DNA from: Cnuella takakiae | GTDB taxonomy: Bacteria; Bacteroidota; Bacteroidia; Chitinophagales; Chitinophagaceae | DNA length: 64,000 nt | Direction of reading: 5' to 3' | NCBI RefSeq assembly: GCF_001953305.1 | Contig: NZ_MTFE01000010.1 | Coordinates: 1,473,015-1,537,014, forward strand | Shown: positions 1 to 62,973 of the stretch, piece after piece | Layout: each line of letters starts with the position of its first letter | How positions within the stretch are numbered: the first letter of the stretch is position 1 | Program-made: the position numbers and the translations under genes | Notes under the pieces: generated by a model | What the model was told of the DNA's origin: nothing | Databases searched by the model: none | The model's input: the letters and a program-made list of their open reading frames with translations, nothing else

Positions 1-798
1 CGCATCGAGGAAGTGCTGCGTGCCCACAACGTGGTGGACGAAAACCCGCAGGGCAAAACACTGCCCCATTTCCAGCACAGCATCGAGCTGCGCAACGTGT
101 CGTTCGACTACGACGGGCACCCCATCCTCCATAATATCAACCTCACCATTCCTAAGGGGAAGACTATTGCGCTGGTGGGCTCGTCGGGAGCAGGCAAAAG
201 CACGCTGGCCGACCTCGTACCGCGTTTCCACGATGTGAGCAGCGGCGAGTTGCTGATCGATGGCGTGAACATCAGGGATTATTCGCTCCAGTCGGTACGC
301 GAACAGATTTCCATTGTAACGCAGGAGCCCATCCTCTTCAACGATACCATTGCCGCCAACCTGCAGATCGGCAAGCAAAACGCTACCCCCGAAGAACTGG
401 AGGCCGCTGCAAAAGTGGCCAATGCGCATAGTTTTATCACCAACAAGGAGCAGGGCTACCAGACCAATATCGGCGACCGGGGCTCCAAGCTCAGTGGCGG
501 CGAACGCCAGCGCCTTACCATTGCCCGTGCCCTGGTGAAAAACCCGCCCATCCTCATCCTCGACGAGGCCACCTCTTCACTGGATACCGAAAGCGAGCGC
601 CTGGTGCAGGACGCCATCAATAATATGATGCAGAACCGCACTTCCATCGTTATTGCCCACCGCCTCAGCACCATCCGTCACGCCGACGAGATCATTGTGC
701 TGCAAAAAGGAAAGATCGTGGAAAGGGGTACGCACCAGCAGTTGATGGAGTTGGGTGGGTATTACCGGAAACTGGTGGAAATGCAGGAGGTAAAATAA
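1..798 (+). CDS. MsbA-like ABC exporter, C-terminal part (cut by window edge)
   Basis: Reading frame is open from base 1, so this is the 3' part of a longer gene; 265 residues are visible. They form a complete ATPase domain: Walker A GSSGAGKST near residue 60, signature LSGGERQR, Walker B ILILDEATS and H-loop AHRLST. Order and spacing match exporters that carry a membrane domain and an ATPase in one chain (MsbA/LmrA-type), which flip lipids or drugs outward. The missing N-terminal part should hold six membrane helices. Substrate cannot be read from this half. The stop codon is followed one base later by a dispersed inverted repeat (800-1073). Family call is firm; MsbA itself is an inference. 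Confidence 0.92.
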   Translation, partial: RIEEVLRAHNVVDENPQGKTLPHFQHSIELRNVSFDYDGHPILHNINLTIPKGKTIALVGSSGAGKSTLADLVPRFHDVSSGELLIDGVNIRDYSLQSVREQISIVTQEPILFNDTIAANLQIGKQNATPEELEAAAKVANAHSFITNKEQGYQTNIGDRGSKLSGGERQRLTIARALVKNPPILILDEATSSLDTESERLVQDAINNMMQNRTSIVIAHRLSTIRHADEIIVLQKGKIVERGTHQQLMELGGYYRKLVEMQEVK

Positions 799-799
799 A

Positions 800-836
800 C
801 CTCCTGTCCCCTGCAGGGGGAACTTAGGCCGGAATG
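800..836 (+). repeat. Left arm of CCCCCT/AGGGGG repeat pair A
   Basis: Arm reads CCTCCTGTCCCCTGCAGGGG followed by GAACTTAGGCCGGAATG. It is an internal hairpin and is matched in inverted orientation by 1041-1073. The same arm occurs at 3576-3616 and 18335-18373, each with the extension ACTTAGGCCGGAA. It starts one base after the stop codon of the ABC gene. Confidence 0.85.
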
Positions 837-876
837 GCTGAGGGTATTAGATGGTGTCATTCAAAGTAAGTTTTGA

Positions 877-949
877 TGGGAACACAGATGAAACGGATGG
901 AACTGATGGGAACAGATATCCGTTTCATCCGTTCTATCCGTGTTCCCAT
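877..949. repeat. Imperfect inverted repeat inside pair A
   Basis: Words TGGGAACACAGATGAAACGG and GATGGGAACAG on the left are answered by CCGTTTCATCCGTTC and CCGTGTTCCCA on the right. The arms nearly fill the stretch. No gene is visible between 799 and 1074. Confidence 0.7.
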
Positions 950-985
950 TCCGAGATCAAAAAGATAAAACCTGCTGTTTTATAG

Positions 986-1028
986 TAAACAACAATGCCC
1001 CTCTGCAGCAGAGGGGCATTGTTGTTTA
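986..1028. terminator. 43-base palindrome between convergent genes
   Basis: Two perfect 21-base arms, TAAACAACAATGCCCCTCTG plus C and its complement, separated by a single base. The end of the stem is A/T-rich on both strands, so it could stop transcription from both the ABC gene and the acyl-CoA dehydrogenase gene. A related hairpin sits in the same place inside pair C (18411-18455). Confidence 0.75.
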
Positions 1029-1040
1029 AAGTTATGTGCG

Positions 1041-1073
1041 ACCTAAGTTCCCCCTCTAGGGGGACAGGGGGTG
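1041..1073 (-). repeat. Right arm of repeat pair A
   Basis: ACCTAAGTTCCCCCTCTAGG followed by GGGACAGGGGGTG, the inverse of the arm at 800-836. It ends one base before the stop codon of the acyl-CoA dehydrogenase gene at 1075. Right arms lack the GGCCGGAA extension seen on left arms. Confidence 0.85.
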
Positions 1074-1074
1074 T

Positions 1075-2208
1075 TTAAATTTCCCTGGCTATCACCACCT
1101 TCTGTATCTCGCTGGTGCCTTCCCCAATAGTACAGAGCTTGGCATCGCGATAATGTTTTTCTACCGGGAAATCCTTGGTATAACCATAGCCACCAAAAAC
1201 CTGTACGGCATCATTGGCCACTTTCACCGACACTTCGGAAGCATAGTATTTAGCCATAGCCGAAATCTTGGTTACCGACTCACCGCGGCTCTTCAGGTCG
1301 CAGGCCTGGAGGGTGAGCAGGTCGGCGGCCTCTATTTCGGTGGCCATATCGGCCAGCTTGAATGAAATGCCCTGGAAGGAAGCGATGGGTTTGCCAAACT
1401 GGTGGCGCTCCTGTGCATATTTCACAGCAGCTTCAAAGGCGCCTTTTGCAATACCCAGGGAAAGGGAGGCTATAGAAATACGGCCGCCATCCAGCACCTT
1501 GAGCGATTGCTTAAAGCCATCGCCCACCTCGCCCAAGCGGTTCGCATCAGGAATAATGCAGTTGTCAAATACCATTTCGGCGGTTTCGGAAGCCCGCATC
1601 CCCAGCTTGTTTTCCTTTTTGCCACCGCTAAAACCGGGTGTGCCGCGCTCCACGACAAATGCTGTTGCATTGTTTTTGGTGCGGGGTTCGCCGGTACGGC
1701 AGATCACCACCGCCACATCGCCGGTAAGGCCGTGGGTGATCCAGTTCTTGGTACCGTTAATCACCCAGTTGTCGCCATTGCGCACCGCGGTGCACTGCAT
1801 ATTGCCCGCATCGGAGCCGGTGTTGGCCTCGGTAAGTCCCCAGGCCCCGATCCATTCGGCCGTGGCCAGTTTGGGTAAATATTTTTGTTTTTGCGTCTCG
1901 TTGCCAAACAGGAGGATATGGCCGGTGCACAGCGAGTTGTGCGCCGCAACGCTCAGGCCGATGGAGCCGTCCACCTTGGCAATTTCCTCGATGATGGCCT
2001 TGTACTCAAAATAGGAAAGACCGGCGCCGCCGTACTGCTCGGGCACCAGTACACCCATCATACCCAGCTGGCCGAGGGCTTTGAAGATATGGGTGGGGAA
2101 TTCCTGGCTTTCGTCCCACTCCATTACGTGCGGACGGATCTGTTGTTGTGCAAACTCACGGGCGGCCTGTGCCACCTGCTGGGTGATTTCTGTGGTTTCG
2201 AAGTTCAT
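1075..2208 (-). CDS. Acyl-CoA dehydrogenase
   Basis: A 377-residue protein of typical length for short/medium-chain acyl-CoA dehydrogenases, which put a double bond between C2 and C3 of acyl-CoA using FAD and pass electrons to ETF. The motif LTEANTGSDAG near residue 130 is the FAD/substrate signature, and IGEGTSEIQ near the C terminus contains the Glu that serves as catalytic base in this family. The start ATG at 2208 agrees with the family N terminus. Chain-length preference cannot be read. It is a single gene facing the ABC gene. A small hairpin (CGCAGA/TCTGCG) lies about 45 bases upstream. Confidence 0.95.
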   Translation of the reverse strand: MNFETTEITQQVAQAAREFAQQQIRPHVMEWDESQEFPTHIFKALGQLGMMGVLVPEQYGGAGLSYFEYKAIIEEIAKVDGSIGLSVAAHNSLCTGHILLFGNETQKQKYLPKLATAEWIGAWGLTEANTGSDAGNMQCTAVRNGDNWVINGTKNWITHGLTGDVAVVICRTGEPRTKNNATAFVVERGTPGFSGGKKENKLGMRASETAEMVFDNCIIPDANRLGEVGDGFKQSLKVLDGGRISIASLSLGIAKGAFEAAVKYAQERHQFGKPIASFQGISFKLADMATEIEAADLLTLQACDLKSRGESVTKISAMAKYYASEVSVKVANDAVQVFGGYGYTKDFPVEKHYRDAKLCTIGEGTSEIQKVVIAREI

Positions 2209-3575: not shown

Positions 3576-3616
3576 CACCCCCTGTCCCCCTGAAGGGGGA
3601 ACTTAGGCCGGAAATG
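3576..3616 (+). repeat. Left arm of repeat pair B
   Basis: CACCCCCTGTCCCCCTGAAG followed by GGGGAACTTAGGCCGGAAATG. Same family as 800-836 and 18335-18373. Its partner is 4136-4171; together they enclose one small gene. Confidence 0.85.
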
Positions 3617-3794
3617 TTTTTATTATTTCACTCAAGCCTTATTTCAGTATGGCCTGGATTGAATGCGACTGCAAGATACAAAGAAGCATTTTTTTAAAGC
3701 CCTTCCCAACCTTTGCAGGTTGTAAGCCTTATTTAAGCGCTAACTTCCATATTTGTATTTGAAGATTAGTAAAAAACAGCATAAATGTTCGGTT

Positions 3795-4064
3795 ATGAAT
3801 GCTTTACTCCGGTTTGCAACCCGGTCTCCATTACTAATAACCCTGCTTTTTATTGGCTTAATCTACAGCATTGTTTATTGGTTATCGCCGGGTATCAGAT
3901 TTCCTTTAATAACCATTTTCCCATTCATCATCATTCTTTATAAATATTATCAGTATCGTAAAGGAAACCGCCAACCACTAGAGAAGATGGCCTACTTAAG
4001 CATCATTATGGCCATTACCCTAGCAGTTCTGCTGATTGTTACCAGGCTTTTCGACTTAAGCTAA
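3795..4064 (+). CDS. Small membrane protein of unknown function, inside repeat pair B
   Basis: An 89-residue protein starting at ATG 3795 (an upstream in-frame TTG at 3753 is also possible but less likely). It has three hydrophobic segments: LLITLLFIGLIYSIVYWL, PLITIFPFIIILYKYY and LSIIMAITLAVLLIV, joined by a basic loop YRKGNRQPLEK. I do not recognise a family. The sequence is visibly richer in A/T than the genes around it and is bracketed by inverted copies of a dispersed repeat. Both points suggest a recent arrival or cargo, although it could also be a native gene that happens to sit between repeats. Confidence 0.5.
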   Translation: MNALLRFATRSPLLITLLFIGLIYSIVYWLSPGIRFPLITIFPFIIILYKYYQYRKGNRQPLEKMAYLSIIMAITLAVLLIVTRLFDLS

Positions 4065-4135
4065 TAAGCCGAATAAACCTTATCATCAAAGTTTATTGAA
4101 TGGATGGAAAGTTTATTTTACCTAAAGACACGCTT

Positions 4136-4171
4136 ACCTAAGTTCCCCTTTCAGGGGGACAGGGGGTGGGG
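4136..4171 (-). repeat. Right arm of repeat pair B
   Basis: ACCTAAGTTCCCCTTTCAGG followed by GGGACAGGGGGTGGGG, inverse of 3576-3616. It ends two bases before the stop codon of porX at 4174. Confidence 0.85.
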
Positions 4172-8356: not shown

Positions 8357-8601
8357 ACCGCTATCCTTCCTGATAAACCACAAATTATTTCCAACCACTT
8401 ACGCCAACAAGAATGCTGGGTTGTAAATAGAAAACTGGGATTGCACCAAGTGAATACATTGTGGTTCTTCTATTTCATTGTTGGCCAGAAACGGCCCATC
8501 ACTAACTCCCCTGCACTCAGGAATGGCAACCAGGCATATCGTAGTCTGGCTTTTATGGTTGCGTGAAGCAGCGGCAGCCCGTAGGGCTTAAATCTGAATA
8601 G

Positions 8602-8620
8602 CCGCCGGTTGCACCGGCGG
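8602..8620. repeat. Hairpin CCGCCGGT-TGC-ACCGGCGG, copy 1
   Basis: Perfect 8-base arms around TGC. Identical to 8738-8756 and part of the larger symmetric block. Confidence 0.8.
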
Positions 8621-8651
8621 GAAACAAGGCGCCGGCTGAATGCCAAATGCC

Positions 8652-8707
8652 CAACCCCGTAGGGGTTGAATAATACAGGTGCTCAAGGTTCAACCCCCAA
8701 GGGGTTG
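8652..8707. repeat. Two CAACCCC/GGGGTTG hairpins
   Basis: CAACCCCGTAGGGGTTG at 8652-8668 and CAACCCCCAAGGGGTTG at 8691-8707. Palindromes built on AACCCC and GGGGTT are a known style of dispersed element in this phylum. Confidence 0.75.
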
Positions 8708-8737
8708 GCCGTTATAGGGTTGCGCTTTCTTTGCCAT

Positions 8738-8756
8738 CCGCCGGTTGCACCGGCGG
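8738..8756. repeat. Hairpin CCGCCGGT-TGC-ACCGGCGG, copy 2
   Basis: Exact second copy of 8602-8620, in the right half of the symmetric block. Confidence 0.8.
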
Positions 8757-8857
8757 CTATTTGAATTGAAGCCCTATGGGCTTTACAGAACCTTGACGGA
8801 TTACCGGGATATAATGCCAGGGGTATCTGTTTCTTTTACCTCCATTCCAAACTTAAT

Positions 8858-16090: not shown

Positions 16091-16100
16091 ATTTGGAACC

Positions 16101-16186
16101 TGTCATGCCGAACTTGTTTCGGCATCCCCCCTGCTTTCGCAAACTCCGAGAAAAGAAGGAGATGCCGAAACAAGTTCGGCATGACA
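16101..16186. repeat. TGTCATGCCGAACTTG dispersed repeat, unit 1 (perfect arms)
   Basis: A 26-base left arm, TGTCATGCCGAACTTGTTTC plus GGCATC (16101-16126), and a perfect inverse at 16161-16186 around a 34-base loop. Related but decayed units lie at 30106, 30205, 60504 and 60602. This is the best preserved copy. Confidence 0.9.
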
Positions 16187-16244
16187 GACGCTATAACTTT
16201 CAAGTTCCCTTCATACCTTAATAAATTCACTCACCACTCACCAC

Positions 16245-18326: not shown

Positions 18327-18334
18327 AAACCATA

Positions 18335-18373
18335 CCCCCTGTCCCCCTAAAGGAGGGAACTTAGGCCGGAATG
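18335..18373 (+). repeat. Left arm of repeat pair C
   Basis: CCCCCTGTCCCCCTAAAGGA followed by GGGAACTTAGGCCGGAATG. Starts eight bases after the SMP-30-like gene's stop codon. Partner 18466-18499. Confidence 0.85.
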
Positions 18374-18410
18374 CCCGCCCATTCTGCGAATTGCTTTAGA
18401 ATTAAGTTGT

Positions 18411-18455
18411 TATAATAACAGCGCCCCTCTGCTTTGGAGCGGCGCTGTTATTATA
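18411..18455. terminator. Hairpin inside pair C
   Basis: Perfect 15-base arms TATAATAACAGCGCC/GGCGCTGTTATTATA with loop CCTCTGCTTTGGAGC. In position and style (GCCCCTCTGC core, AACA flanks) it corresponds to the palindrome 986-1028 of pair A. Probably a two-way terminator. Confidence 0.7.
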
Positions 18456-18465
18456 GGGTTGTATT

Positions 18466-18499
18466 ACCTAAGTTCCCCCTTTAGGGGGACAGGGGGTGG
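18466..18499 (-). repeat. Right arm of repeat pair C
   Basis: ACCTAAGTTCCCCCTTTAGG followed by GGGACAGGGGGTGG. Ends at the base before the stop codon of the GH144-like gene (18500). Confidence 0.85.
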
Positions 18500-27549: not shown

Positions 27550-27562
27550 GTAAAGCGTCAAT

Positions 27563-27709
27563 GGGCAATGGTGAATAGTGAATAGTGAATTTGAGAGCTC
27601 ATTATATTCAATCAGGCTTTTATTTATCTGGTATAAACATCTTTTACGATAGTAACTTAAATCCTCCTCCAATCGTCTAACTACTCACTATTCACCATTG
27701 CCTATTCAC
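27563..27709. repeat. GGCAATGGTGAATAGTGAAT inverted repeat between kinase and regulator genes
   Basis: GGCAATGGTGAATAGTGAAT (27564-27583) and ACTCACTATTCACCATTGCC (27683-27702) pair with one mismatch around a 99-base loop. The same vocabulary recurs at 35325-35380 and 44938-44990. Confidence 0.85.
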
Positions 27710-29987: not shown

Positions 29988-30105
29988 TTCCATTGTTGGG
30001 AAAGCTGCAAGCTTTTAGCTGCAAGGCTAGCTTAATCCAAAAAGGTTTATTGCTGGTACATACCCGAACCTTGTCAGGTATTAGGTTCTTGTTAACCGCA
30101 ACAGC

Positions 30106-30190
30106 TGTCATGCCGAACTTGTTTCGGCATCCCCTTTTGTAAACAAATACCCGAAGGTGTAAGGAGATGCTGCCATACGTCAGCATGACA
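30106..30190. repeat. TGTCATGCCGAACTTG repeat, unit 2
   Basis: Left arm identical to unit 1 (30106-30131). The right arm GATGCTGCCATACGTCAGCA plus TGACA (30166-30190) has diverged. Confidence 0.8.
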
Positions 30191-30204
30191 AACCCCGTGA
30201 ACAC

Positions 30205-30287
30205 TGTCGTGCCGAACCTGTTAAGGCATCCTCCCAACCACCGAAGTGTCCGATAGCAGAAGGAGATGGCGCGACGTCGGCATGCCA
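30205..30287. repeat. TGTCATGCCGAACTTG repeat, unit 3 (decayed)
   Basis: TGTCGTGCCGAACCTGTTAA and GGCATC, with right arm GATGGCGCGACGTCGGCATG. Directly follows unit 2, making a tandem pair as at 60504-60686. Confidence 0.7.
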
Positions 30288-39019: not shown

Positions 39020-39382
39020 GATCGTCTTAAATTATAGGTAAGGCAATATAGTGGTTTAGGTGCTATCAAATAATGAGCCCGGGTACAAAATGCGACAAAA
39101 GGGCAGAGTCTTTTTCACGCAACGACGCAACGGAGCCACGATTATTTCACGCAGAGACGCAAAGGAGCAAAGATGCAAAAGGGAAAGGTGTATGGCTCGC
39201 AAAGCCGAAGAGACGCAAAGTATAGTTTTGTAAGTGGGTAGAATTTCAAAAACAAACAAATCGTTGCGCCATGGCCCCGTTGCGTCGTGGCGTGAAAAAT
39301 TCTTTGCGGCTTTGCTCCTTCGCATCTTTACGTGACAGAAACTGTTGCGGCTTTCTTTATCTTCAGCCCCCAACCCGTTTAC
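39020..39382. other. Divergent gap of 363 bases holding a long repeat array
   Basis: Between clpP and the M14 gene. No gene. Mostly filled by the ACGCAACGACGCAACGG / GCAAAGACGCAAAG array 39111-39334. No exact -7 motif was found on either side. Confidence 0.7.
39111..39334. repeat. CACGCAACGACGCAACGG / GCAAAGGAGCAAAGATGC array
   Basis: TTTTTCACGCAACGACGCAA (39111 on) pairs with CCGTTGCGTCGTGGCGTGAA (39277 on), and CACGCAGAGACGCAAAGGAG (39148 on) pairs with CTTTGCGGCTTTGCTCCTTC (39302 on). The order of the arms is parallel rather than nested. Same family at 48799-48874 and 51787-51946. Confidence 0.85.
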
Positions 39383-45087: not shown

Positions 45088-47322
45088 ATGGAAACCGTAG
45101 CGCAGAAACCGAAGTATAACCTCAACGAAGAACAGGAAAAGAAACTCATTCTCCGCGAATACCGCGCCCTGCTCCGTTGCCTTAAATCCCGCATCAAACC
45201 CGGCGACCGCAAGTTGCTCCGACATGCTTTTGAGATGGCCGCCGACGCTCATAAAAGCATGCGCCGCAAAAGCGGTGAGCCCTACATCCTGCACCCGCTG
45301 GCCGTTGCCCGCATTTGCGTGGAAGAAATAGGGCTGGGTATCCGCTCCACCATTTGCTCCCTGCTGCACGATACGGTTGAAGACACCGACATCTCGCTTG
45401 AAGACCTGCAGCGTGAGTTTGGCTCCGAGATCGCCAAGATCGTGGATGGCCTCACCAAGATTTCCAACGTCATTGATGTGAACGCCTCGCAGCAGGCCGA
45501 GAACTTTAAAAAAATCCTGCTCACCCTCACCGACGACCCGCGGGTGATCCTCATTAAGCTCGCCGACCGCCTGCACAACATGCGCACCCTCGACAGCATG
45601 AAGCAGGAAAAGCAGTTGAAGATCGCCTCCGAAACGGTATACGTGTATGCCCCGCTGGCCCATCGCATGGGCCTGTACAACATGAAGACGGAGATGGAAG
45701 ACCTCTCCATGAAGTACCTGGAGCCGGACACCTATAAGGAAATTGCCCGCAAGCTGTCGGAAACACGCCGCGAACGGAGCCGTTTTATCAATGAATTCAT
45801 CAAGCCGTTACGCGATAAGCTGGAAGGGACCGGGCTTGACTTCGATATTTATGGCCGTCCCAAAAGCATCCATTCCATCTGGAATAAGATGAAGAAAAAG
45901 GGCGTGGCCTTTGAAGAGGTGTACGACCTTTTTGCCATCCGGGTTATCCTCAACTCCCCTCCGGAGCGGGAAAAGGAAGACTGCTGGAAAGTGTACTCCA
46001 TGATCACCGACGAGTACAACCCATCGCCGGAGCGCCTGCGCGACTGGCTGTCCAACCCCAAAAGCAACGGCTACGAGGCCCTGCACACCACGGTGATGGG
46101 CCCCAACGGGAAATGGGTGGAAGTGCAGATCCGTACCAAGCGGATGAACGAGATTGCCGAAAAAGGCCTTGCTGCCCACTGGAAATACAAGGAAGGTACC
46201 AATGAGGAAAACCGATTTGATAAGTGGTTCAGCCAGATCCGCGAGGTGATCACCAACCAGGACATCGACTCGGTGGATTTCCTGCAGGATTTCAAAACCT
46301 CCTTCCTTGCTGAAGAAATTTATGTGTACACACCCAAGGGCGATGTGAAGATGCTGCCCATTGGCGCATCGGCACTCGACTTTGCCTTTTCGGTACACAG
46401 CCAGGTGGGCTCTAAATGTATCGGTGCCAAGGTGAACCATAAACTGGTGCCCATTTCGCACAAGCTGCGCAGCGGCGACCAGGTGGAGATCATCACCTCC
46501 AACAAGCAAAAACCTACCGAGGACTGGTTAAACTTCGTGGTAACGGCCAAGGCCCGTGCCCGCATCAAGGATGCGTTGAAGGAGCAAAAGAAAACCATTG
46601 CCGAAGAAGGGAAGTATACCCTGCAACGCAAGCTGGAAGCCCTGGGTGCCGCCCTCAATCCGCACAATATCGACGAGCTGATTGTACACTATAAAGTGAA
46701 CTCGGCGCTCGACCTGTATTATGGTATCGCCATCAAAAGCATCGACCTTAAAGAACTCAAGGAGTACAAGGTTGTTGGCGATAAACTGGAAATTCCCAAG
46801 GTAGAAAAACCGCTGCCCGAGCAGAAGCCTGCCGAACTCCACATCCCGCGTAAGGATACCGAACTGATCATCTTTGGCGAGAGCAGCGATAAGATCATGT
46901 ACAACCTGGCCAACTGTTGCAAGCCCATTCCCGGCGACGATGTGTTTGGCTTTGTAACTACCGGCAAAGGGCTTACCATTCACCGTACCTCTTGCCCCAA
47001 CGCCCCCAAGCTGATGGCCAACTATGGCCACCGGATCGTAAAGACCAAGTGGGCCAAGAACAAGGAGATTTCCTTCCTCACGGGTCTCAAGATCATCGGT
47101 ATGGATGATGTGGGTATCATCAACAAGATCACCAATATTATTTCCGGCGACATGCGGATCAATATTGCCGCACTCACCATTGAGTCGGGTGAAGGGCTGT
47201 TTGAAGGCACCATCCGGGTGTTTGTACACGATAAGGAGGAACTGGAGGAACTGGTGGAGCGCCTGCTGGCACTCGATGGCATACAGCGGGTAGAGCGGTT
47301 TGAAACGGAAACGGCGGGATAG
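45088..47322 (+). CDS. rsh: Bifunctional (p)ppGpp synthase/hydrolase (RelA/SpoT)
   Basis: A 744-residue Rsh protein controlling the alarmone (p)ppGpp. The HD hydrolase domain is intact (YILHPLAVARI, LLHDTVEDTD). The synthase domain has GRPKSIHSIWNKM, DLFAIRVIL and YEALHTTVMGPNGKWVEVQIRT. The TGS domain starts at IYVYTPKGDVKMLPIGASALDFAFSVH; the cysteine-containing region has NCCKPIPGDDV; a C-terminal ACT domain ends the protein. Both activities are expected. A TAAATTCG box ends six bases before the ATG. An inverted repeat separates it from purA. Confidence 0.95.
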   Translation: METVAQKPKYNLNEEQEKKLILREYRALLRCLKSRIKPGDRKLLRHAFEMAADAHKSMRRKSGEPYILHPLAVARICVEEIGLGIRSTICSLLHDTVEDTDISLEDLQREFGSEIAKIVDGLTKISNVIDVNASQQAENFKKILLTLTDDPRVILIKLADRLHNMRTLDSMKQEKQLKIASETVYVYAPLAHRMGLYNMKTEMEDLSMKYLEPDTYKEIARKLSETRRERSRFINEFIKPLRDKLEGTGLDFDIYGRPKSIHSIWNKMKKKGVAFEEVYDLFAIRVILNSPPEREKEDCWKVYSMITDEYNPSPERLRDWLSNPKSNGYEALHTTVMGPNGKWVEVQIRTKRMNEIAEKGLAAHWKYKEGTNEENRFDKWFSQIREVITNQDIDSVDFLQDFKTSFLAEEIYVYTPKGDVKMLPIGASALDFAFSVHSQVGSKCIGAKVNHKLVPISHKLRSGDQVEIITSNKQKPTEDWLNFVVTAKARARIKDALKEQKKTIAEEGKYTLQRKLEALGAALNPHNIDELIVHYKVNSALDLYYGIAIKSIDLKELKEYKVVGDKLEIPKVEKPLPEQKPAELHIPRKDTELIIFGESSDKIMYNLANCCKPIPGDDVFGFVTTGKGLTIHRTSCPNAPKLMANYGHRIVKTKWAKNKEISFLTGLKIIGMDDVGIINKITNIISGDMRINIAALTIESGEGLFEGTIRVFVHDKEELEELVERLLALDGIQRVERFETETAG

Positions 47323-47331
47323 GAGTTAAGG

Positions 47332-47452
47332 GTTTGGGGTTATGTGTTTGGGGTTTGGAGTTGGTAGATAGGAAACCGGTTTTGAGATGTAAATCATTCA
47401 AACTCCAAATGTTTAACCTCCAACTCTAAACCCCAAACACATAACCCCAAAC
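47332..47452. repeat. GTTTGGGGTTATGTGTTTGG inverted repeat between rsh and purA
   Basis: 33-base arms, 47332-47364 and 47420-47452, pair with one mismatch around a 55-base loop. The arm consists of GGTTTGGGGTT-type words, and further AACCCC words extend it to 47472. Starts about ten bases after the rsh stop codon. Confidence 0.9.
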
Positions 47453-47491
47453 TCCAAACCCCTAACCCCAAACTTCTAACCTGTTTTCGCC

Positions 47492-51769: not shown

Positions 51770-51786
51770 GGGTGCTTTTTGGGGTT

Positions 51787-51946
51787 TTCACGCAAAGGCG
51801 CGGCGGAGCAAAGACGCAAAGTTTTTCTCGCAACGACGCGGCGGAGCAACGGAACTATTGTACAAATCCAAGACGCTACTGCAAAAACTTGTTGCTTCTT
51901 TTTCCTTATACCAACTCCTTTGCTCCTTTGCGGCTTTGCGAGAAAT
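51787..51946. repeat. CACGCAAAGGCGCGGCGGAG array, running into gatA
   Basis: TTCACGCAAAGGCGCGGCGG (51787 on) with AGCAAAGACGCAAAG is answered by CTCCTTTGCTCCTTTGCGGC then TTTGCGAGAAA (51916-51946). A second left word CTCGCAACGACGCGGCGGAG lies at 51827. The right arm is inside the gatA coding frame. Confidence 0.85.
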
Positions 51947-60347: not shown

Positions 60348-60503
60348 GGGCGGCAGCGGGAGCAATGGTGCGGACCGAACCGCGGGAAACGCGAAAGAGT
60401 AGGCTGTGGTGGATTCTTTTATACAAACTTCAAGGCGGCTAATTGCCTGAGTGGTAGAACTGTACTGGCAATTTGAGATAACAGGTACCGTATTGCCAAG
60501 GTC

Positions 60504-60587
60504 TGTCATGCCAAACTTGTTGCAGCATCCCCTTCATTACACAGGTACTTCTAAGATTGCAGGAGAGGCCCCGACGACGGCATGATG
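60504..60587. repeat. TGTCATGCCGAACTTG repeat, unit 4 (decayed)
   Basis: TGTCATGCCAAACTTGTTGC and AGCATC on the left; GGCCCCGACGACGGCATGAT on the right. Confidence 0.7.
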
Positions 60588-60601
60588 GTGAACCCGGATA
60601 C

Positions 60602-60686
60602 TGTCATGCTGAACTTGTTTCAGCATCTCCTTCGGTATACAGGTACTCCGAAGAACTGAGGGAGATGCCGTCATTCGTGGGCATAA
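60602..60686. repeat. TGTCATGCCGAACTTG repeat, unit 5 (decayed)
   Basis: TGTCATGCTGAACTTGTTTC and AGCATC on the left; GATGCCGTCATTCGTGGGCA on the right. Loop shares TACAGGTACT with unit 4, so units 4 and 5 may be a tandem copy. Confidence 0.75.
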
Positions 60687-61194: not shown

Positions 61195-62766
61195 ATGTTA
61201 GATCTTTCTAAACTCAATCAGGACCGGAAGCAAGGCAAACGCAACAAGCCTGCGGTTGACCTGAGCACCATGGTTTACGGCAAAGTGCCGCCCCAGAGCA
61301 AAGAACTGGAGGAGGCCGTGCTGGGTGCCATCATGCTTGAAAAAGGCGCCTTCGACGTGGTGATCGAAATTCTGAAAGCCGAATGTTTTTACGTGGACGC
61401 CCACCAGCGGATCTTTCGCGCCATCCAGGGACTGGCCAATAAAAGCCAGCCCATTGATATCCTGACGGTGGTGGAAGAACTTCGTTTCCGCGAGGAGCTG
61501 GAAATGATTGGCGGTCCTTATTATGTTACCAAGCTTACCAACAGCGTGGTGTCGTCGGCCAACATCGAGGCACACGCCCGCATCATCCTCCAAAAGTTCA
61601 TTCAGCGCGAACTGATCCGCATTTCGGGCGAAATCATCCAGGAAGCTTACGAAGACAGCACCGATGTATTCGAGTTGCTGAACTCGGCGGAAAGCAAGAT
61701 GTATGATGTAACCAACAAACACCTCAAGAACAACTACGAATCGATTGACTCCGTACTGGTAAAAACCATCCAGCGTATCGAAGACCTCCGCCACCGTAAT
61801 GAAGACATTACGGGTGTGCCGAGCGGTTTTCCTGCCCTGGACAAGGTTACTTACGGCTGGCAAAATACCGACTTGATCATCCTCGCTGCCCGTCCCGCGG
61901 TAGGTAAAACGGCCTTCGCCCTCAACCTTGCACGCAACGCGGCCCTGCACCCCACAAGGCCCACGCCGGTGGCGGTATTCTCGCTTGAAATGGGTGCGGC
62001 ACAGCTGGTGTCGCGAATTCTTTCGGCAGAAAGTGAGATCTGGCTGGAAAAGATATCCCGCGGTAAGATGGAAGAGCACGAAATGAAGCAGCTGTATGCC
62101 AAGGGTATTCAGAAGCTGGCGCAGGCGCCCATCTTCCTCGACGACTCGGCCGGTTTGAACGTATTTGAACTGCGTGCCAAGTGCCGCCGTTTGAAAACGC
62201 AGAACAACATTGGTATGATCATCATCGACTACCTGCAGCTGATGAGTGGTACCGGTGATAAGGGCTCCAACCGCGAACAGGAAATTTCAACCATCTCCCG
62301 CTCGCTGAAGGGCCTGGCTAAAGAACTGCAGGTACCGGTAATCGCCCTGTCGCAGTTAAGCCGGGAAGTGGAAAAACGTAAAGACGGCAACAAGATGCCC
62401 CAGCTCTCCGACCTTCGTGAATCGGGTGCCATCGAACAGGATGCCGACATGGTATGCTTTATTTACCGCCCCGACTACTACGATGTGGCGCAAAACGAAA
62501 TGGGTGAAAGCGTAAAAGGAGAAACCCACCTCCGTATTGCCAAGCACCGTAACGGTTCGCTCGAAACCATCGTGCTGCGGGCCCGCCTCGAGATCCAACG
62601 CTTCTATGATGATTCGGCGGGCGACAGCTTTGGTGGCAACAACCTGCCCTCCAACTGGAAACCCGTTCAGGACGGTGGTGGCGGCGCCAACGGCGGCGGT
62701 GCCCGGATGTTTATCCAGACGAGCAGCAAGATGAATGACCTGGGGGATGATGATGATCCCTTTTAA
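61195..62766 (+). CDS. dnaB: Replicative DNA helicase DnaB with SSB-like acidic tip
   Basis: A 523-residue helicase. The N-terminal domain (PPQSKELEEAVLGAIMLEKGAFD) leads to the RecA-like core with Walker A AARPAVGKTAFALNLARNA, Walker B MIIIDYLQLM, SREVEKR and the arginine-finger area LRIAKHRNG. It unwinds DNA at the fork. Past the usual core end the chain adds a Gly/Asn-rich linker (DGGGGANGGGARMFIQTSS) and closes with MNDLGDDDDPF, closely resembling the C-terminal tip of SSB (consensus DDDIPF). The stop codon overlaps the left arm of a 34-base inverted repeat. Confidence 0.95.
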   Translation: MLDLSKLNQDRKQGKRNKPAVDLSTMVYGKVPPQSKELEEAVLGAIMLEKGAFDVVIEILKAECFYVDAHQRIFRAIQGLANKSQPIDILTVVEELRFREELEMIGGPYYVTKLTNSVVSSANIEAHARIILQKFIQRELIRISGEIIQEAYEDSTDVFELLNSAESKMYDVTNKHLKNNYESIDSVLVKTIQRIEDLRHRNEDITGVPSGFPALDKVTYGWQNTDLIILAARPAVGKTAFALNLARNAALHPTRPTPVAVFSLEMGAAQLVSRILSAESEIWLEKISRGKMEEHEMKQLYAKGIQKLAQAPIFLDDSAGLNVFELRAKCRRLKTQNNIGMIIIDYLQLMSGTGDKGSNREQEISTISRSLKGLAKELQVPVIALSQLSREVEKRKDGNKMPQLSDLRESGAIEQDADMVCFIYRPDYYDVAQNEMGESVKGETHLRIAKHRNGSLETIVLRARLEIQRFYDDSAGDSFGGNNLPSNWKPVQDGGGGANGGGARMFIQTSSKMNDLGDDDDPF

Positions 62767-62827
62767 CCGGTGATTTGCAGGATTTTTAAAGGATTAATAG
62801 GAAAAAGGCAGTCCGTATTTGATTTGG

Positions 62828-62856
62828 CACCCACGCTTAACCACGTGGGTGTTTTA
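62828..62856 (+). terminator. Intrinsic terminator after dnaB
   Basis: CACCCACG/CGTGGGTG, eight perfect pairs with loop CTTAACCA, followed by TTTT. Confidence 0.75.
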
Positions 62857-62918
62857 TTTAAACCATAAATGGAGCTGTGTTCAATGTCTGGCAATCCAAT
62901 CTTGTAACTCCCTGTTAG

Positions 62919-62926
62919 TACCTTCG
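62919..62926 (+). promoter_or_regulatory. Near-consensus -7 element for rsmE
   Basis: TACCTTCG, one mismatch from TAnnTTTG, 47 bases before the ATG, inside the loop of the inverted repeat. Confidence 0.4.
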
Positions 62927-62973
62927 CACCACGTTCTTATTAATCCTTTAAAAATCCTGTAAATCACCGGTTC

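What the first reader, a model, noticed from the sequence alone, without database searches (positions are those of the whole stretch)
800..1073. Paired dispersed repeat that fills the space between two stop codons
Arms 800-836 and 1041-1073 are inverted copies of one GC-rich hairpin word. The left starts one base after the ABC stop codon and the right ends one base before the dehydrogenase stop codon. A 43-base palindrome (986-1028) sits inside. Pair C (18335-18499) repeats the plan: same arms, a related inner hairpin with GCCCCTCTGC, and an end exactly at a stop codon. Seen directly. Inference: a REPIN-like or MITE-like unit that targets gene 3' ends, or that serves as a two-way terminator. 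Left arms carry ACTTAGGCCGGAA and right arms do not, so the element is polar.
Basis: partly seen in the sequence, partly recalled or inferred. Interest (0 to 1): 0.65.

Follow-up and report, generated by a model that had tools for sequence, protein, structure and literature searches.

The report
Nuclease-linked mobile palindrome pairs at gene ends
The repeat is one of about fifty copies of a short, two-ended mobile DNA unit that carries its own two-way transcription stop signal and sits at gene ends; the same end-sequences also bracket genes for a little-studied DNA-cutting enzyme (DUF559), which suggests a so far undescribed way for bacterial genomes to spread small DNA cassettes, even into the middle of essential genes.

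Summary
In the host genome I found 52 inverted arm pairs and 10 single arms. The pairs are polar (A-end CTTAGGCCGGAGTG, B-end CTTAGGTCAAACA), most about 165 bp long, and usually carry a terminator-like hairpin near the B-end. 35 of 52 lie between convergent genes and 1 between divergent genes; 79 of 86 gene ends facing them stop within 40 nt of the edge. Empty or differently filled orthologous gaps, and a 91% interior match between copies with unrelated flanks, support mobility. No target duplication was found.

The partner is not a RAYT: both RAYT-like genes of this genome have other palindromes. The same arms bracket DUF559 (Vsr-like, EDxHD/PD-(D/E)XK) nuclease genes in this genome and relatives. 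About half of 133 testable DUF559 loci have matching inverted palindromes on both sides (0-0.3% of control windows). Nuclease and arm sequences covary. About a third of DUF559 genes sit in frame inside conserved genes (leuS, ileS, metH, metG). I read the finding as a gene-less, terminator-carrying derivative of such elements. That the nuclease moves them is inferred, not shown.

The parts
1..798 (+).
   Evidence: ORF list; sequence
799..836 (+). Site A, left palindromic arm with A-end (CTTAGGCCGGAATG)
875..949 (+). Second module inside the element: GATGGGAACACAGAT...ATCCGTGTTCCCAT inverted repeat, present in about a dozen of the longer copies
986..1028 (+). Inner 20-bp hairpin with A-rich and T-rich flanks, bidirectional-terminator-like
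1041..1073 (-). Site A, right palindromic arm with B-end (CTTAGGTC on the - strand)
1075..2208 (-).
   Evidence: orthologues in all 17 other genus members
3577..3607 (+). Pair B, left arm
   Evidence: I9, D6
3795..4064 (+). Passenger ORF (89 aa, hydrophobic) between the arms of pair B
4137..4170 (-). Pair B, right arm
   Evidence: I9
18334..18373 (+). Pair C, left arm with A-end
18411..18455 (+). Pair C, inner terminator-like hairpin
18467..18498 (-). Pair C, right arm (B-end)

Best explanation
The element is a non-autonomous mobile cassette: two inverted palindromic arms (A-end and B-end) around a core with a bidirectional intrinsic-terminator hairpin. It belongs to a larger class in which the same kind of arm pair brackets a DUF559 nuclease gene (Vsr-like, EDxHD/PD-(D/E)XK). 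Shown by comparison: the arms, pairing, polarity, dispersal, presence/absence at orthologous sites, arms around DUF559 genes, nuclease-arm covariation, and in-frame insertion of full elements in conserved genes. Inferred: the DUF559 nuclease acts on the arms or on target DNA, and repair copies the arm-bounded cassette into the break without a target duplication; gene-less copies were moved in trans. Copies that carry a terminator survive only where stopping transcription does no harm or helps, that is just behind stop codons and above all between convergent genes; nuclease copies, which can keep an open frame, can also survive inside genes.
For: Same arm as the finding around DUF559 in G000 (4234133-4234598, frameshifted remnant), G003, G001 and G007. 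Matching inverted repeats (score >=16) at DUF559: 32/59 near relatives against 1.25% partner-swapped and 0.3% random windows; 33/74 in other taxa (Bacteroidota, Chloroflexota, a Desulfobacterales) against 0/133 windows elsewhere on the same contigs. Nuclease and arm similarity covary (Mantel r 0.40, P 0.001). Genomes with DUF559 have arms (17/24 against 2/34, P 2e-7). Independent parallel in G010: one DUF559 with similar arms plus about 18 gene-less pairs, most 190-225 bp, with a different central terminator hairpin. Mobility: site A gap has no element in G004, G005, G015, G017, and in G006 an element of opposite polarity; hemL gap lacks the arms in G005, G010, G011, G013; interior 91% identical between copies 3.5 Mb apart with unrelated flanks. 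leuS loop empty, arms-only or nuclease-filled among relatives. RAYT genes have other palindromes. Catalytic-type residues invariant; profile matches 3HRL (4e-33) and 3R3P 'mobile intron protein' (1e-6), which I know as homing endonuclease I-Bth0305I.
Against: No movement was observed, and the only G000 DUF559 with these arms is frameshifted. About half of DUF559 genes show no clear flanking repeat by my ungapped test. A DUF559 of about 130 aa has no known transposase chemistry; it could be a passenger of another system. Copies in G000 are old (median interior identity 58%), so activity may be long past. The G005 hemL gap has a hairpin with the same stem (GCCGCTC) as the G000 core there, so the core may be a captured native terminator or the G005 gap a relic.
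Confidence: 0.55

Rival explanations
1. A classical REPIN moved by a RAYT (Y1 HUH) transposase; DUF559 genes are passengers of the same palindromes.
For: Pairs of inverted palindromes with no target duplication look like REPINs. RAYT-like genes exist in the genome, and Bacteroidetes RAYTs are known to be flanked by atypical palindromes (PMC6006769).
Against: Both RAYT-like genes of G000 are flanked by other palindromes (CCCACGGTTGAAACCGTGGG; GCCGCCGGTTGCACCGGCGG with AGCCCTACGGGCT) and have no arm of this family in their loci. DUF559 and arm sequences covary.
Confidence: 0.12
2. DUF559 is a homing endonuclease that only converts allelic empty sites; the gene-less pairs are dead remnants spread by other means and owe their position to selection as terminators.
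For: Homology to a homing endonuclease; the same leuS loop is occupied in 16 loci, and site labels cluster on the nuclease tree.
Against: Gene-less copies are numerous (52 in G000, about 18 in G010), mostly of near-constant size, and share a core that DUF559 copies lack, so they amplified as their own unit. leuS-site nucleases are not one clade (at least 7 changes).
Confidence: 0.2
3. A MITE of a conventional DDE insertion sequence with palindromic ends.
For: Terminal inverted repeats of about 31 bp, short size, many copies.
Against: No target duplication of 2-5 bp at offsets 0-4 beyond chance; no transposase of this kind was seen between such arms, whereas DUF559 was.
Confidence: 0.06
4. Not mobile: a bidirectional terminator cassette maintained by selection and shared through gene conversion among loci.
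For: Terminator-like core in about 39/50 copies, strong convergent bias.
Against: Orthologous gaps lack it or hold other repeats; opposite polarity in G006; the same arms bracket nuclease genes.
Confidence: 0.07

Closest known systems
REPIN / RAYT (TnpA-REP) systems
   Same: Short inverted pairs of palindromes, extragenic, many copies, a nuclease gene bracketed by the same palindromes, no target duplication.
   Different: The bracketed gene is a DUF559 Vsr-like nuclease, not a Y1 HUH protein; the arms are asymmetric (A/B) and the cassette carries its own terminator.
EDxHD homing endonucleases (I-Bth0305I; fractured genes)
   Same: Relatives of DUF559 by sequence profile; insertion in conserved genes.
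   Different: No intein was found around it by Pfam; the insert stays in frame and its arms are translated; palindromic arms and gene-less derivatives are, to my knowledge, not part of the described family.
MITEs such as Correia and ERIC elements and MITEs of insertion sequences
   Same: Short, non-coding, terminal inverted repeats, intergenic, can carry regulatory signals.
   Different: No target duplication and no insertion-sequence parent found; the parent-like element encodes DUF559.
Rickettsia palindromic elements (RPE)
   Same: Palindromic DNA inserted in frame in protein genes.
   Different: RPEs have, to my knowledge, no nuclease gene inside; here the in-frame insert encodes one.

Membership tests
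REPIN (RAYT-dependent) | Two inverted REP palindromes forming a unit, many copies | tested here: met
   52 pairs in G000
REPIN (RAYT-dependent) | A RAYT gene flanked by the same palindrome | tested here: not met
   Two RAYT-like genes in this genome, both with other palindromes; relatives were not searched for RAYTs
REPIN (RAYT-dependent) | GTAG/CGTC-type tag at one end of the palindrome | tested here: not met
   Arm consensus TMAYACCCCCTGTCCCCCTNNAGGGGGAACTTAGG has neither tag; tag classes as in PMC3733652
DDE MITE | Terminal inverted repeats | tested here: met
DDE MITE | Target-site duplication | tested here: not met
   No excess of flanking direct repeats in 44 elements
EDxHD/Vsr-like homing endonuclease (the DUF559 partner) | Sequence relation to I-Bth0305I or Vsr | tested here: met
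   3R3P 1.1e-6, 3HRL 4e-33; Vsr model 3e-6 for one member, below its cut-off
EDxHD/Vsr-like homing endonuclease (the DUF559 partner) | Invariant catalytic-type residues | tested here: met
   E14, D42, E53, D55, G56, H59 invariant in 18 sequences
EDxHD/Vsr-like homing endonuclease (the DUF559 partner) | Cuts an empty site and homes into it | not testable with these tools
   needs biochemistry
Intein | Self-splicing domain around the nuclease | tested here: not met
   Pfam scans of 18 in-frame host proteins found host domains and DUF559/REase only
Bidirectional intrinsic terminator | GC stem with A-tract before and T-tract after, on both strands | tested here: met
Bidirectional intrinsic terminator | Transcripts end there | not testable with these tools
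   no RNA data

The most novel reading that the evidence does not exclude
DUF559 nucleases are the engines of a phylum-spanning class of mobile elements with palindromic ends: full elements insert in frame, without splicing, into loops of essential enzymes, and mobilise in trans gene-less cassettes that act as portable bidirectional terminators at gene ends. It would be a REP-like system built on a Vsr/EDxHD nuclease instead of a HUH transposase.
Probability: 0.4. Interest if true: 0.88.

Novelty: new variant of a known kind. Interest (0 to 1): 0.74.

Why it matters
DUF559 is a common 'unknown function' family whose partners, and whose in-frame presence in essential proteins, have lacked an explanation. 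A link between DUF559, palindromic repeats and terminator-carrying cassettes would give the family a role, explain a large class of Bacteroidota repeats, and offer a system for testing how palindromes spread without a HUH transposase. It also warns annotators: leuS, ileS, metH and metG proteins with an extra 150 or so residues can carry a mobile nuclease.

Tried and rejected
Rfam gave no family for the element. RAYT as partner: rejected for this genome. Site C and the polA site as further orthologous gaps: synteny not kept in the relatives, no test possible. Target duplication: none found. Loops identical within an element more than chance: weak (20/52 against 14.3 expected, P 0.03), not used. 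A first, broader DUF559 alignment could not seed the genome scan. Literature: no paper in the open-access library, by these searches, describes DUF559 with palindromic arms or gene-less derivatives; one paper files DUF559 under EDxHD homing endonucleases (PMC9403480) and one studies a DUF559 protein, VsrA, in Caulobacter (PMC12907096). Subscription journals were not searched.

Full report
1. Observation. The coordinates are right. The left arm begins one base behind the ABC stop (796-798), the right arm ends one base before the dehydrogenase stop (1075-1077), and the inner 43-nt palindrome is perfect. Pair C repeats the plan and a third pair B lies at 3577-4170. Seven arm matches in the window compare with 0.37 expected.

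2. Genome-wide anatomy. The genome (5.7 Mb) has 118 arm matches with up to 3 mismatches and no match of the reversed pattern. In the stretches read I resolve 52 inverted pairs and 10 single arms. Interior length is 100-105 nt in the main class and larger in about 20 copies. The ends differ: A-end CTTAGGCCGGAGTG, B-end CTTAGGTCAAACA. In about 39 of 50 copies with interiors under 300 nt the core holds a long hairpin, mostly 10-20 nt from the B-arm, with stem GCCCCTC/GAGGGGC, GCCACTC/GAGTGGC, GCCGCTC/GAGCGGC or GCCACCC/GGGTGGC, flanked by AACAACAA and TTGTTGTT. The stem variants change on both sides, so pairing is kept. In 348 kb of read sequence such hairpins are nearly confined to elements (26 inside, 2 by single arms, 5 elsewhere and mostly of other sequence). 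About a dozen long copies hold a second inverted-repeat module (GGGAACACGGAT...ATCCGTGTTCCC).

3. Position. By an ORF-based call, 35 of 52 pairs lie between convergent genes, 16 in tandem and 1 between divergent genes; the window as a whole has 13 convergent and 13 divergent of 43 junctions (P 0.0004 and 0.0002). The two sets of junctions were called with different ORF cut-offs, so the comparison is rough. 79 of 86 facing stop codons are within 40 nt of the edge. Some stops are supplied by the arm itself (TAA or TGA of the loop, offset -17; TAG of CTTAGG, offset -30).

4. Mobility. At the orthologue of site A (ABC/dehydrogenase convergent gap) the sequence shows 6 nt between the stop codons in G005, 8 in G015, 11 in G004 and about 40 in G017, with no element; G013 has a short hairpin only. 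G006 has an arm pair of opposite polarity with another interior. G011 has a DUF559-type palindrome, and G014 and G001 have other inverted repeats (the gap lengths printed there for G004 and G017 are wrong because these loci are cut at a contig end). At hemL the gap lacks the arms in G005, G010, G011 and G013. The site A copy and the copy at 4952459 are 91% identical inside, with unrelated flanks. No target duplication is seen. Site C and polA could not be tested.

5. The partner. One pair (4234133-4234598) encloses a DUF559 gene, which is frameshifted. DUF559 genes of relatives are bracketed by arms: the finding's own arm in G003 (L134), G001 (L145) and G007 (L146), and related C-rich palindromes elsewhere (CTCACCCCNNRCCCCTCTCC...GGAGAGGGG). 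Against controls: 32 of 59 near loci reach score 16, partner-swapped 1.25%, random windows 0.3%. In 74 loci from named genomes 33 reach it; 0 of 133 windows elsewhere on the same contigs do. Similar nucleases have similar arms. Across 58 genomes DUF559 and arms occur together (partly because the bracketing arms are counted themselves). The 3' side of the DUF559 gene carries the B-type TC(A/G) end in four of the five copies with the finding's arm, which agrees with the polarity of the gene-less copies. The RAYT-like genes have their own, different palindromes; one of those families is the window repeat at 8576-8782.

6. A parallel case. G010, which has one DUF559 gene, has about 18 gene-less pairs with CTCACCCCCGGCCCCTCTCC arms, mostly 190-225 bp, with a different central hairpin (AAAGAGCGGATGCC...GGCATCCGCTCTTT), again at gene 3' ends and never between divergent genes. 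The DUF559 arms there are similar, not identical (2 mismatches in 20). Arms, terminator and position thus recur with other sequences.

7. In-frame insertions. 45 of 144 DUF559 loci lie in an open frame with at least 110 residues before and 80 behind. Hosts include leuS (two sites), ileS, metG, metH, tryptophan dioxygenase, ispG, an M23 peptidase, a B12 mutase fusion, RecQ-, Lhr- and UvrD-type helicases and a protein of the OMP decarboxylase family. One leuS loop (GAEI.F / VYTTRPDT) is empty in most relatives, holds arm remnants in G001 and G010, and a whole element in G004, G007, G011, G017, G028 and G029. The nucleases at this site are not one clade (at least 7 changes on well-supported branches), so the site was invaded repeatedly or nucleases were exchanged. 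G000 itself has an in-frame element in a metH-like gene at 794292, beside a masked stretch.

8. Mechanism. DUF559 is Vsr-like and related to the homing endonuclease of entry 3R3P, with invariant acidic residues. My best model is cut-and-repair copying of arm-bounded cassettes, in cis for nuclease copies and in trans for gene-less ones. The terminator core restricts survivors to gene ends. Shown by comparison: arms and nuclease form one unit, gene-less derivatives exist, elements come and go. Inferred: the enzymology, action in trans, and termination of transcription.

9. Known or new. REPIN/RAYT, DDE MITE and intein membership each fail a tested feature. It works like a REPIN system with another nuclease. 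The open-access literature searched gave no such description; that does not exclude one elsewhere.

Noticed in passing
window 8576-8782: Inverted pair AGCCCGTAGGGC...GCCGCCGGTTGCACCGGCGG equals the palindromes around the RAYT-like gene at G000:C1:2176478 (L040): probably a conventional REPIN of this genome.
   Followed up: partly
window 16100-16187, 30105-30233, 60503-60630: Another family of inverted pairs, CTGTCATGCCGAACTTGTTTCGGCATC, copies 58-99 nt apart.
   Followed up: no
window 39096-39314, 51785-51946, 47316-47468, 62765-62972, 27557-27709: Further inverted pairs of unrelated phrase-like sequences (TTTTCACGCAACGACGCAACGG; GGGTTTGGGGTT; TTCACCATTCACTATTC); gene gaps of this genus are filled by many such families.
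   Followed up: no
window 3795-4064: Hydrophobic 89-aa ORF carried between the arms of pair B as a possible passenger.
   Followed up: no
L183 and L182, leuS loop: In G015 and G003 the variable leuS loop contains phrase-like sequences resembling other dispersed repeats (AACTCACCATTCACCATTGAC; AGGAGTCAGGAGCCAGGAATCAG), so the loop seems a general landing place.
   Followed up: partly
L265 (Flavobacterium): A metH reading frame holds two DUF559 copies in frame (1153 aa as read).
   Followed up: no
L123 (G029:C90): leuS with two DUF559 elements in one reading frame of more than 1200 aa.
   Followed up: no
L333 (G005, hemL gap): The 31-nt gap is just a hairpin AACAATGCCGCTC..GAGCGGCATTGTT whose stem matches the rare stem in the G000 element there: relic or captured native terminator.
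   Followed up: partly
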